A stretch of 64,000 nt of DNA, from contig CAJQPN010000001.1 of assembly GCA_905480195.1 (NCBI GenBank), forward strand, positions 1 through 64,000. Direction: 5' to 3'. Below the pieces are notes generated by a model that worked only from the letters and a program-made list of their open reading frames with translations, was not told the DNA's origin and searched no databases. The stretch's first letter is position 1, and each line of letters begins with the position of its first letter. The DNA comes from an uncultured Acidimicrobiales bacterium. Its GTDB lineage: Bacteria; Actinomycetota; Acidimicrobiia; Acidimicrobiales; Aldehydirespiratoraceae. The position numbers and the translations under genes are program-made. Shown here piece by piece: positions 1-2,952 of the stretch.

Positions 1-402
1 GAGGGTGGTGTTGAGCGCCTCGGTGACGTGGTAATCCCAGCATTTGCCGACGATGCAAACGACTTCGGTACCGGCGGCGACAAGGTTCGCCAGGGTCTGG
101 TCCGAGTCGACCTTTCCTTTGGCTCGACGAGTCGAACCGAAGGCGACGAACTTCGACGTCGACAACGAGAGCTCGGTGCGCGCCCGGGCGAAGAACTCGT
201 CGTCCTTCGGGTTGGCACCCGGCCAGCCACCCTCGATGTAGGCGACCCCGAGCCGGTCGAGTTGCTCCGCGATGCGGAGCTTGTCGTCGACCGTGAGCGA
301 GATACCTTCGAGTTGGCTGCCGTCGCGCAGGGTGGTGTCGTAGATGTCGACCGCCGTCGGCCACGACGGGTCGCGATGCGCGGAACGGTCGATCACGGTC
401 AT
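1..402 (-). CDS. cimA: (R)-citramalate synthase, N-terminal part (cut by the window edge)
   Basis: Only the first 134 codons lie in the window; the 3' end is beyond position 1. The translation begins [11 protein letters not shown] and carries the alpha-isopropylmalate/homocitrate synthase family signature DTTLRDGSQ at residues 22-30, followed by [12 protein letters not shown], which is typical of the CimA-like branch rather than LeuA. CimA condenses acetyl-CoA with pyruvate to citramalate, the entry to a threonine-independent route to 2-oxobutyrate and isoleucine. Its ATG overlaps the ilvE stop by one base (TGATG), so the two are probably translationally coupled in a leuB-ilvE-cimA operon. 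A distant alternative is another Re/Si-specific acyl-CoA lyase, but the neighbours favour CimA. Confidence 0.85.
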
Positions 403-1319
403 CAACCCGCCAGTTCGTTCCAGGCGCGGTACTTGTCGTTGCGACCGCGGACGAGGTCGGCGTATGCAGCGGCAAGTGCGGTGGTGGCTGGGCCGGGGCA
501 CGGCACCGTGCGGTCATCGACCGAGTTCACGGCCGAGACCTCAGCTGCGGTCCCGACGACGAAGATCTCATCGGCGATGTAAAGGTCGCTGCGAGCCAGA
601 TCACCGATCTCGATGTTGATGCCGAGGTCGGCGGCGAGCCTCATCACGGTGTCTTGGGTGATGCCGGGAAGTGCACCTGACGAAGACGGCGGGGTGATGA
701 CGACATCCCCCTTCGCGCAGAACAGGTTCTCACCCGAGCACTCGCTCACGAGACCAGCGCCATTGAGCATGATTGCCTCGTCATAGCCCGCGTTGAGGGC
801 TTCCATCTTGGCGAGCGTGCTGTTGGCATAGTTGCCGGTGGTCTTGGCCGCCGGCGGCATGATGTTGTGGTCGTGGCGCGTCCAGGAACTGATCTTCATC
901 CGCACGCCCTTGCTGACCGCGTCATCGCCCAGATACGCACCCCACGGCCACGCCGCGATCGCAATATCGGTGGTGCACGCACCCGTGGCGAGGCCCATCT
1001 CGCCGAAGCCGTAGTAGGCGATGGGCCGCAGGTAGCACGCGTCGAGACCGGAATCGGCAACGACGTCTTTGCACGCCTGGACGATCGTCGCAACGTCGAA
1101 CGGCATCGGCATGCCCAGGATCTTGGCCGAGTTGTACAAGCGTTCGATGTGCTCCGTCAGCCGAAAGATCGCAGGTCCCTGCTCGGTCTCGTACGCACGG
1201 ATCCCCTCAAAGACGCCCGTGCCGTAATGGAGCGTGTGGGTGAGGACGTGGATCTTTGCGTCTTCCCACGGAACCATCTCGCCGTTCATCCAGATGTTGG
1301 GGGTTGTTTCGATGGGCAT
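402..1319 (-). CDS. ilvE: Branched-chain amino acid aminotransferase
   Basis: Class IV PLP aminotransferase of 305 residues, the usual IlvE length. It interconverts 2-oxo acids and Leu/Ile/Val in the last step of branched-chain synthesis. [13 protein letters not shown] near residues 31-43 is the family N-terminal signature, and the Schiff-base lysine is K159 in [11 protein letters not shown]. The ATG is preceded by GAGGAG, which overlaps the leuB stop, so leuB and ilvE are closely coupled (9 nt apart). The stop overlaps the cimA start. It is probably controlled by the attenuator upstream of leuB. D-amino acid aminotransferase or ADC lyase share the fold, but sequence and context favour IlvE. 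Confidence 0.93.
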
Positions 1320-1328
1320 GAGTGCTCC

Positions 1329-2294
1329 TCAGAGACGGGCGACGACCAGGTCGCCGATCTCGCTGGTGGATCCGGTGAGTGTGTTCGGGTTGGCGCACGC
1401 CGCCCGAATGCGATCGGCCGCCTCGGTCTCACCAAGGTGGTCCAACATCATCGCACCGCTCAAGATGGCGGCGACAGGGTTTGCCTTGCCCGTGCCGACA
1501 ATGTCGGGTGCCGAGCCGTGCACCGGCTCGAACATCGACATGCCGCTCGGGTTGAGGTTCGCGGTGGGTGCCAGGCCGATTCCACCCGAGATGGCGCCAC
1601 CGAGATCAGTCAGGATGTCGCCGAAGAGGTTGTCGGTGACGATCACGTCGTAACTCTCGGGCCGATCGACGAAGTAGATGCACGCAGCATCGACATGGTT
1701 GTACGCCGTCTCGACCTCGGGATACTCGCCGGCGACCTCGTTGAACGTTCGCTCCCACAGGTCACCTGCGAAAGTGAGGACATTGGTCTTGTGGACGAGC
1801 GTGCAGTGCTTGTTTCGCTTCATCGCCAACTCGAAGGCGTAGCGGACACAGCGCTCGACTCCATGGCGGGTGTTGACCGAACCCTGGGTCGCGATCTCGT
1901 AGGGCGTCCCCTTTCGCAGGAACCCACCTTCACCGGCGTAGGTACCTTCGGTGTTTTCGCGGATCACGACGAAGTCGTGGCCTGGGGCGACGAAGGGCCG
2001 GTAGTTGATGTAGAGGTCGAGTTCGAAGCGCATGCGCAGAAGCAGGCCTCGCTCAATCAGGCCCGGCGGGACGTCGGGGGTGCCGACGGCACCGGCGTAC
2101 AGAGCGTCGATACCGCGCCATTCCTCGATGATCTCGTCAGGAAGGACAGTGCCGTCCTTCAGGTAGCGCTCGCCACCGAGGTCATAGTCGATGCGGTCGT
2201 ACTCGATGCCGAGCGCGTCGATGACCTTCAGGCCCTCGGTGATGACCTCGGGACCGATGCCGTCGCCACCCATGATGCCGATGCGATGCGCCAT
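1329..2294 (-). CDS. leuB: 3-isopropylmalate dehydrogenase
   Basis: Isopropylmalate/isocitrate dehydrogenase family, 321 residues. The chosen start is the ATG before AHRIGIMGGDGIGPEV (signature GGDGIGPEV at residues 9-17). AGGGAG lies about 10 nt upstream, and a longer in-frame extension to 2354 would run through the attenuator hairpin. DNLFGDILTDLGG supplies the metal-binding aspartates, and FEPVHGSAPDIVGTG is the NAD-binding region. LeuB oxidatively decarboxylates 3-isopropylmalate. The same enzyme handles 3-methylmalate in the citramalate route, which fits cimA downstream. It is the first gene of a leuB-ilvE-cimA operon. Confidence 0.92.
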   Translation of the reverse strand: MAHRIGIMGGDGIGPEVITEGLKVIDALGIEYDRIDYDLGGERYLKDGTVLPDEIIEEWRGIDALYAGAVGTPDVPPGLIERGLLLRMRFELDLYINYRPFVAPGHDFVVIRENTEGTYAGEGGFLRKGTPYEIATQGSVNTRHGVERCVRYAFELAMKRNKHCTLVHKTNVLTFAGDLWERTFNEVAGEYPEVETAYNHVDAACIYFVDRPESYDVIVTDNLFGDILTDLGGAISGGIGLAPTANLNPSGMSMFEPVHGSAPDIVGTGKANPVAAILSGAMMLDHLGETEAADRIRAACANPNTLTGSTSEIGDLVVARL

Positions 2295-2310: not shown

Positions 2311-2340
2311 GAAACAAGAAAATCCGCCCACCAGAGCGGA
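2311..2340 (-). terminator. Attenuator terminator hairpin before leuB
   Basis: On the minus strand TCCGC (2340-2336) and GCGGA (2327-2323) form a short GC-rich stem, extendable by one G-T pair, around an 8-nt loop. TTTTCTTGTTTC follows directly. This is a stem plus U-rich tract about 30 nt before the leuB start, in the right place for a conditional terminator. The stem is short (5-6 bp), so efficiency is uncertain. Confidence 0.6.
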
Positions 2341-2346
2341 CGGAGG

Positions 2347-2374
2347 CCGCGCACGCCGGATGCCCGACGTGCGC
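2347..2374 (-). promoter_or_regulatory. Attenuator hairpin preceding the leuB terminator
   Basis: GCGCACG (2374-2368) and CGTGCGC (2355-2349) are a perfect 7-bp inverted repeat. The first arm begins at the last base of the leader-peptide stop codon. GCGG (2350-2347) can instead pair with CCGC (2339-2336), which would sequester the 5' arm of the terminator stem. The segment therefore has the mutually exclusive pairing expected of a ribosome-controlled attenuator. Pairings were found by eye; no folding energy was calculated. Confidence 0.55.
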
Positions 2375-2409
2375 TACGAAATGCTGATGATGAGCGCGGT
2401 AGCCATCAC
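2374..2409 (-). CDS. Branched-chain amino acid leader peptide
   Basis: An 11-codon reading frame, GTG start, encodes MMATALIISIS (valine codon read as initiator Met) and stops with TAG. One Leu and three Ile codons among eleven is the control-codon enrichment expected of a leucine/isoleucine attenuator peptide. The GTG lies exactly 7 nt after a TAGGCT -10 element with no Shine-Dalgarno, so it is probably translated from the first base of the mRNA. The stop codon abuts the first arm of the hairpin before the leuB terminator. Known actinobacterial ilv and leu leaders have the same arrangement; this one is my inference from sequence. Confidence 0.65.
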   Translation of the reverse strand: MMATALIISIS

Positions 2410-2416
2410 GCCCGCG

Positions 2417-2445
2417 AGCCTACCGGGCTGACAACTCGCTCTCAA
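2417..2445 (-). promoter_or_regulatory. Promoter of the leuB-ilvE-cimA operon
   Basis: On the minus strand, TTGAGA (2445-2440), a 17-bp spacer and TAGGCT (2422-2417) form a good sigma-70-like promoter. Transcription should begin at or next to the GTG of the leader peptide at 2409. Confidence 0.65.
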
Positions 2446-2475: not shown

Positions 2476-2952
2476 ATGGCAGCAGCACAGCAGCTTTCCC
2501 AGGCCGCCTTCGACCGACTCAAGGCCGAGTACGACGACCTGACTTCGCGCGGCCGCATCGATATCGCTCGCAAGATCGAAGCCGCTCGCGAACTCGGCGA
2601 CCTCTCCGAGAACGGCGACTACCACGCCGCTAAAGAGGAACAGGGCAAGATGGAGGGTCGCATCATGCACCTCAGCCGCATGATCGAAGACGCCGTGATC
2701 GTCGAGAACGATGGCGGCGGCGATTCGGTCATGACCGGCGCCATCGTCACGATCGTCTTCGACGGTGACGACGAAGACGATGCTGAGCGTTACCTCGTCG
2801 GCTCGATCGAAGAGCAGGCCGACGACGTCACGGTCGTGTCTCCGGGCTCACCGATGGGCGCTGCACTGCTTGGTGCGGCGGTTGGTGACGAGGTCGAGTA
2901 CGAAACCCCCTCCGGCGCAACGCTCAAAATCAGGGTCCTCGCGATCGACTGA
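2476..2952 (+). CDS. greA: Transcription elongation factor GreA
   Basis: 158 residues, the normal GreA length. It binds the RNA polymerase secondary channel and stimulates transcript cleavage in backtracked complexes. The N-terminal coiled coil carries the conserved tip LGDLSENGDYHAAKEE at residues 40-55, with acidic D42 and E45 as catalytic residues. The C-terminal half is the FKBP-like domain, ending VEYETPSGATLKI. The chosen ATG has a TANNNT element 6 nt upstream; a frame open to 2191 runs into the divergent leuB leader and is rejected. It is followed after 21 nt by an unrelated exported cupredoxin. Confidence 0.94.
   Translation: MAAAQQLSQAAFDRLKAEYDDLTSRGRIDIARKIEAARELGDLSENGDYHAAKEEQGKMEGRIMHLSRMIEDAVIVENDGGGDSVMTGAIVTIVFDGDDEDDAERYLVGSIEEQADDVTVVSPGSPMGAALLGAAVGDEVEYETPSGATLKIRVLAID

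What the first reader, a model, noticed from the sequence alone, without database searches (positions are those of the whole stretch)
2311..2445. Complete branched-chain amino acid attenuator with a leaderless leader peptide before leuB-ilvE-cimA
Seen: TTGAGA-17-TAGGCT promoter, a GTG 7 nt later opening MMATALIISIS, a 7-bp hairpin that begins at the leader stop codon, and a 5-6 bp GC stem followed by TTTTCTTGTTT just before leuB. GCGG at 2350-2347 can pair with the 5' arm of the terminator, giving mutually exclusive structures. Known: attenuators controlling ilv/leu genes use Leu/Ile/Val-rich leader peptides. Inference: ribosome stalling at the Ile codons prevents termination. Unusual point: the leader appears to be translated from a leaderless mRNA, so initiation would differ from the classical SD-driven model. 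The Ile bias fits an operon containing cimA.
Basis: partly seen in the sequence, partly recalled or inferred. Interest (0 to 1): 0.85.

Follow-up and report, generated by a model that had tools for sequence, protein, structure and literature searches.

The report
Isoleucine-sensing leaderless attenuator before leuB
Before the leuB-ilvE-cimA genes of this uncultured actinobacterium lies a tiny isoleucine-rich peptide gene, a hairpin fused to its stop codon and a transcription terminator; the same switch recurs across the class Acidimicrobiia with codons matched to the pathway it precedes, so it is very probably a real amino-acid sensor, but not quite of the textbook design.

Summary
On the minus strand: a -10 element, 7 nt, an 11-codon leader VMATALIISIS*, an 11-bp hairpin (hp1) starting at the stop codon, a 9-bp terminator with U-tract, then leuB. 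It is not chance: 240 of 395 sampled genomes of the class match a covariance model of the element, and I compared 139 distinct copies. Most precede leuB (114); 23 precede cimA and 2 ilvB. Weaker relatives precede ilvB and, once, leuA. The codon run follows the pathway: IIII before cimA, V/I mixtures before leuB, LVV/VLL before ilvB, LLL before leuA. Ile at codon -2 is kept in 137 of 139, as AUU in 107. No Rfam family matches. Leaderless initiation is supported by promoter spacing but is not unusual: C. glutamicum and Streptomyces ilv leaders are leaderless too. Both hairpins coevolve strongly, but no pairing competing with the terminator does, although the tests would detect a 4-bp antiterminator. 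So it looks like a ribosome-mediated attenuator, but the textbook antiterminator was sought and not found. How a stalled ribosome prevents termination is open. No transcript or expression data exist for it.

The parts
2440..2445 (-). -35 element TTGAGA
   Evidence: TTGA also found 20-45 nt before the leader start in 30 of 70 relatives with a strict -10
2417..2422 (-). -10 element TAGGCT, 7 nt before the leader start codon
   Evidence: TANNNT 6-9 nt before an in-frame start in 70 of 139 copies against 2.7 in shuffles
2374..2409 (-). leader peptide ORF VMATALIISIS, start GTG at the predicted transcript start, stop TAG 2376-2374
2380..2382 (-). Ile codon AUU at position -2 from the stop, the most conserved codon of the family
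   Evidence: Ile in 137 of 139, AUU in 107, against 12.6% AUU among Ile codons of the downstream genes
2349..2374 (-). hairpin 1 (11 bp, loop GCAU) whose first paired base is the last base of the stop codon
   Evidence: arms coevolve in the swap test, z -27
2312..2344 (-). intrinsic terminator: 9-bp stem 2344-2323, then TTTTCTTGTTT
   Evidence: arms coevolve, z -19
1332..2294 (-). leuB, 3-isopropylmalate dehydrogenase, first gene of the regulated operon
   Evidence: NCBIfam NF002898, 457.9 bits against a cutoff of 393
402..1319 (-). ilvE, branched-chain amino acid transaminase
   Evidence: NCBIfam NF005146, 413.4 bits against a cutoff of 279
1..405 (-). cimA, citramalate synthase (fragment, cut by the contig start)
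   Evidence: TIGR00977 is the best match, E 1.9e-46, over the first 117 profile positions

Best explanation
It is a leaderless, ribosome-read transcription attenuator that couples leuB-ilvE-cimA expression to charged isoleucine (and valine/leucine) tRNA. Transcription starts at or next to the GTG of an 11-codon leader, which 70S ribosomes translate without a Shine-Dalgarno site. With enough Ile-tRNA the ribosome finishes and leaves, hairpin 1 forms on the stop codon, the terminator forms 30 nt further on, and RNA polymerase stops before leuB. When Ile-tRNA is short the ribosome stalls in the I-I-S-I run, chiefly at the AUU two codons before the stop. Its leading edge then covers the 5' strand of hairpin 1, and more polymerases read through into leuB. 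SHOWN by sequence comparison: leader, promoter spacing, both hairpins, codon identity and its match to the downstream pathway. INFERRED: stalling, premature termination and its relief. UNRESOLVED: how loss of hairpin 1 prevents termination, because no conserved antiterminator pairing was found. Possible routes are weak, unselected pairing of the freed 3' strand with the terminator, or termination that depends on hairpin 1.
For: Element conserved in 240 of 395 class genomes, found first through leuB, not through itself. Downstream genes in 139 copies: leuB 114, cimA 23, ilvB 2. Codon run follows the pathway: cimA IIII; leuB V/I; ilvB VLLI or LVV; leuA LLL. Ile at -2 in 137 of 139, with AUU strongly preferred over the usual AUC. 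Promoter -10 sits 6-9 nt before the start in 70 copies against 2.7 expected, with no 5-mer Shine-Dalgarno match in any of those 70. hp1 begins at stop+0 to stop+4 in all copies and the terminator at 26-34 nt in nearly all. Both hairpins are kept by coevolution. The same organism's ilvB operon has a second copy: leader ending R-L-V-V-V-I-R, -10 CATACT 7 nt before GTG.
Against: No transcript start, terminated RNA or expression data. No conserved antiterminator. With a ribosome over hp1 the terminator still dominates at equilibrium (0.91-0.95). In S. coelicolor, changing ilvB leader codons had no effect on regulation (cited in PMC1262725), so a BCAA leader does not guarantee classical attenuation. 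The leader frame is open further upstream (2374-2670), so the start rests on the promoter and on relatives.
Confidence: 0.78

Rival explanations
1. Classical attenuator with a conserved antiterminator: a stalled ribosome frees the 3' strand of hairpin 1 (or GCGG at 2350-2347) to pair with the terminator's 5' arm, as in trp, his or the reader's model.
For: In this window a 6-bp alternative pairing is predicted when the ribosome covers hp1. Antiterminators are reported for C. glutamicum and M. tuberculosis ilvB leaders (PMC11857589, PMC13236596).
Against: The pairing is absent in nearly all relatives (4 of 139 have any complementary 4-mer). Own 2:3 pairing is no better than swapped or shuffled pairing (swap z +0.7, shuffle z +0.2), whereas implanted 4-bp pairings give -7.4 and -1.35. 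Loop and upstream pairings are negative too.
Confidence: 0.15
2. Hairpin 1 is itself required for efficient termination (for example as a pause or NusA/NusG-contact hairpin, or by keeping upstream RNA away), and the stalled ribosome lowers termination simply by opening it.
For: hp1 is kept with its sequence and at a fixed place while the terminator sequence varies between lineages. No competing pairing exists. A ribosome stalled at codon -2 would open about half of hp1.
Against: No direct evidence; termination needing two tandem hairpins has not been shown here.
Confidence: 0.3
3. The terminator only trims transcription and the leader peptide has no regulatory role.
For: S. coelicolor ilvB leader codon changes had no effect (as cited in PMC1262725).
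Against: Codon identity follows the downstream pathway in cimA, leuB, ilvB and leuA copies, and the -2 Ile is nearly invariant.
Confidence: 0.07

Closest known systems
C. glutamicum ilvBNC attenuator / Corynebacterium ilvB-II motif (PMC11857589, PMC10272879)
   Same: Actinobacterial BCAA gene, transcript start 1 nt from the leader start codon, no ribosome binding site, BCAA-rich leader, intrinsic terminator.
   Different: There the regulatory codons lie mid-leader, the leader is 15 aa, and an antiterminator overlapping the terminator (loop of P1 with P2a) is proposed. Here the codons abut the stop, hp1 starts on the stop codon, and no loop or arm antiterminator is conserved. Known at ilvB in Corynebacterium, not at leuB or cimA.
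Streptomyces lividans IlvL, LeuL1, LeuL2 and TrpL leaders (PMC8079986)
   Same: Leaderless leader peptides before amino-acid genes, several followed by hairpins and a U-rich stretch.
   Different: Different peptides (for example MRTRILVLGKRVG), not the BCAA-run-X-stop-hairpin design; genes ilvB, leuA, leuS.
Seliverstov 2005 actinobacterial ilvB leaders and leuA LEU element (PMC1262725)
   Same: BCAA-rich leader ORFs before BCAA genes in Actinobacteria; ilvB leaders with terminators but unclear mode of regulation.
   Different: The LEU element is a pseudoknot acting at the Shine-Dalgarno site without a terminator; no Acidimicrobiia genome was in that paper's genome list, and leuB or cimA are not described.
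M. tuberculosis ilvB1 attenuator (PMC13236596)
   Same: uORF with LVVI regulatory codons, terminated about 120-nt RNA, BCAA-dependent readthrough proposed.
   Different: 166-nt leader region with a proposed antiterminator; single operon.

Membership tests
Ribosome-mediated transcription attenuator (trp/his/leu type) | short leader ORF rich in codons for the pathway's product | tested here: met
   Ile at -2 in 137 of 139; codon run follows the downstream gene
Ribosome-mediated transcription attenuator (trp/his/leu type) | intrinsic terminator between leader ORF and first gene | tested here: met
   9-bp stem and U-tract here; arms coevolve in the family, z -19
Ribosome-mediated transcription attenuator (trp/his/leu type) | antiterminator pairing that excludes the terminator | tested here: not met
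   no competing pairing above swap or shuffle controls, with power for 4 bp; possible only in this window
Ribosome-mediated transcription attenuator (trp/his/leu type) | regulation depends on translation of the leader and on charged tRNA | not testable with these tools
   needs reporter assays
Leaderless leader peptide | start codon at the transcript 5' end, no Shine-Dalgarno | tested here: inconclusive
   promoter spacing conserved and no strong Shine-Dalgarno; 5' end not mapped
Corynebacterium ilvB-II motif | antiterminator formed by the loop of P1 with the 3' part of the terminator stem | tested here: not met
   loop against terminator 3' arm, swap z +0.06
LEU element (leuA) | pseudoknot with Leu codons paired to the gene's Shine-Dalgarno site, no terminator | tested here: not met
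   a terminator is present and both hairpins are simple; the pseudoknot itself was not modelled
T-box or other Rfam family | match to an Rfam covariance model | tested here: not met
   only a tRNA in the whole window; nothing at the element nor in 14 loci carrying related copies

The most novel reading that the evidence does not exclude
A class-wide attenuator family that works without an antiterminator: a ribosome waiting at the penultimate Ile (AUU) codon opens a hairpin built onto the stop codon, and loss of that hairpin alone lowers termination at a separate terminator. One module, with its codon run exchanged, serves cimA, leuB-ilvE-cimA, ilvB and leuA.
Probability: 0.3. Interest if true: 0.68.

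Novelty: new variant of a known kind. Interest (0 to 1): 0.52.

Why it matters
It gives a compact, recurring amino-acid switch for a class of mostly uncultured bacteria, absent from Rfam, and shows the sensing codons being exchanged to fit the downstream pathway. If termination is really relieved without an antiterminator, a basic assumption about ribosome-mediated attenuation would need revising, and this family would be a simple system in which to test it. The codon run can also help predict which amino acid a neighbouring gene serves, for example separating citramalate synthase from isopropylmalate synthase.

Tried and rejected
Antiterminator by hp1 3' strand, hp1 5' strand, hp1 loop, Ile codons or upstream leader against either terminator arm: all negative in swap tests, with a spike-in power check. 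A positive control with his leaders from enterobacteria could not be run, because the tool does not take an E. coli record as a centre. A pattern census TAGCGCRCG...CGYGCGC over the phylum found family members but also many apparent chance matches (the reversed-pattern control scores in many genomes too), so it was not used as a count. A second covariance model for ilvB and leuA copies was not built because MAFFT misplaced the hp1 3' arm. DNA palindrome for a regulator: considered unlikely, since the hp1 loop varies from 3 to 8 nt. Two weak model hits in the own genome (C29, C44) showed no leader or BCAA gene.

Full report
WHAT IS THERE. The minus strand reads TTGAGA (2445-2440), 17 nt, TAGGCT (2422-2417), 7 nt, then GTGATGGCTACCGCGCTCATCATCAGCATTTCGTAG (2409-2374), encoding VMATALIISIS-stop. 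The last base of the stop codon is the first paired base of hairpin 1 (hp1), 11 bp with loop GCAU. The terminator is a 9-bp stem at 2344-2323 followed by TTTTCTTGTTT. leuB starts at 2294, followed by ilvE and by a cimA fragment cut at the contig start. The leader frame is also open further upstream, so the start codon rests on the promoter position and on relatives.

IS IT MORE THAN CHANCE? Relatives were fetched by LeuB protein similarity only. At least 27 of about 65 actinobacterial leuB loci carry the same element at the same place. A covariance model built from 42 copies matches 240 of 395 sampled genomes of the class at E <= 0.01, in 139 of 183 genera. I retrieved 139 distinct full copies for comparison. 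In every copy hp1 begins 0-4 nt after the first base of the stop codon (94 at exactly 2). The terminator starts 26-34 nt after the stop in nearly all, with a linker of 0-8 nt. Nothing in Rfam matches the element or related copies.

WHAT IT SENSES. The gene downstream is leuB in 114 copies (100 also with ilvE within the retrieved stretch), cimA in 23 and ilvB in 2; representative proteins were checked with NCBIfam. Weaker matches in the same genomes and in other families of the phylum lie before ilvB and, once, before leuA. The codons before the stop follow the pathway. Copies before cimA, which feeds only isoleucine synthesis, end in I-I-I-I-X. Copies before leuB end in V/I mixtures. Copies before ilvB end in V-L-L-I, L-V-V-x or L-V-L-I. 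The leuA copy ends in N-L-L-L-T. Ile at codon -2 is present in 137 of 139 and is AUU in 107 and AUC in 30, whereas AUU makes up 12.6% of Ile codons in the downstream genes and 1 of 44 at codon -5. A codon decoded by a wobble pair at the most conserved position would fit a stalling site (inference).

LEADERLESS START. A strict TANNNT box lies 6-9 nt before an in-frame start codon in 70 of 139 copies against 2.7 in shuffled upstream sequence. Many of the others show variants such as GACACT or CATACT at about the same place (seen, not tested statistically). In the 70, no 5-mer Shine-Dalgarno match occurs. This supports a leaderless transcript but does not prove it. It is not new in kind: in C. 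glutamicum the ilvBNC transcript starts one nucleotide from the leader start, and a paper of 2000 reports leader peptide formation without a ribosome binding site (PMC11857589). Several S. lividans leaders, IlvL and LeuL among them, are leaderless (PMC8079986).

THE MISSING ANTITERMINATOR. Only 4 of 139 copies, this one included, have any perfectly complementary 4-mer there. I compared each copy's own pairing energy with that obtained after exchanging partners between copies. The hp1 arms and the terminator arms are strongly matched (z -27 and -19). No pairing that would compete with the terminator is: hp1 3' strand to terminator 5' arm z +0.7; others between -1.8 and +2.0. Shuffling gives the same result (mean z +0.2). 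Implanting a 4-bp antiterminator moves these values to -7.4 and -1.35, so a 4-bp pairing shared by the family would have been seen. Folding with a ribosome over the 5' strand of hp1 leaves only weak alternatives, about -5 to -8 kcal/mol on average, and the terminator wins at equilibrium. The tests have limits: pairings peculiar to one lineage, tertiary contacts and protein factors are not excluded.

MECHANISM. The best-supported reading is an amino-acid attenuator read by the ribosome. With enough Ile-tRNA the ribosome clears the leader, hp1 and the terminator form, and transcription stops before leuB. With too little, the ribosome waits at codon -2 and its leading edge covers about half of the 5' strand of hp1. 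Stalling, early termination and its relief are inferred. How opening hp1 affects a terminator 30 nt away is unknown: either weak, unselected competition by the freed 3' strand, or termination that needs hp1. In this window the particular 6-bp pairing may help.

SECOND COPY IN THE SAME GENOME. The organism's ilvB operon (G000:C12) has CATACT, 7 nt, GTG, a leader ending R-L-V-V-V-I-R, TAG, a weaker hairpin and a terminator. The covariance model did not detect it, so copies before ilvB are undercounted.

VERDICT. A real, class-wide regulatory element whose function is inferred with good confidence. It works like a classical attenuator but fails one tested defining feature, so it is filed as a new variant rather than as a member. 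The leaderless start is ordinary for Actinobacteria. The pathway-matched codon run, the stop-codon hairpin and the missing antiterminator are the interesting parts.

Noticed in passing
L302:1270-1450 (G000:C12, upstream of ilvB): A second leaderless-type BCAA leader (ending RLVVVIR-stop) with hairpin and terminator GACCTCCCC..GGGAGGTC lies before ilvB in the same genome; the covariance model missed it.
   Followed up: partly
L113 (G000:C3 near 79554-79573, minus strand): A weak model hit lies in a sequence that resembles a cobalamin riboswitch upstream of an ABC-type substrate-binding protein; seen by eye only.
   Followed up: no
L242, L246, L247, L249 (family f73, other branch of the phylum): Between the BCAA leader and the next long gene lies a conserved ORF of about 90 aa (MKFEIYNGEHVGTAEWQGPGRVALEV...) without an NCBIfam match for the one member scanned.
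   Followed up: partly
2380-2382 and relatives: The codon at -2 is AUU in 107 of 139 copies although AUC is the usual Ile codon; codons -4 and -5 are nearly always AUC when Ile.
   Followed up: partly
2376-2374 and relatives: The leader stop codon is TAG in 129 of 139 copies, unusually uniform for GC-rich genomes; its G is part of hairpin 1.
   Followed up: no
2494-2952 (+): greA is divergent from the leader, so the leuB promoter lies in a short intergenic stretch; several relatives without the element also show a greA-like gene next to leuB.
   Followed up: no
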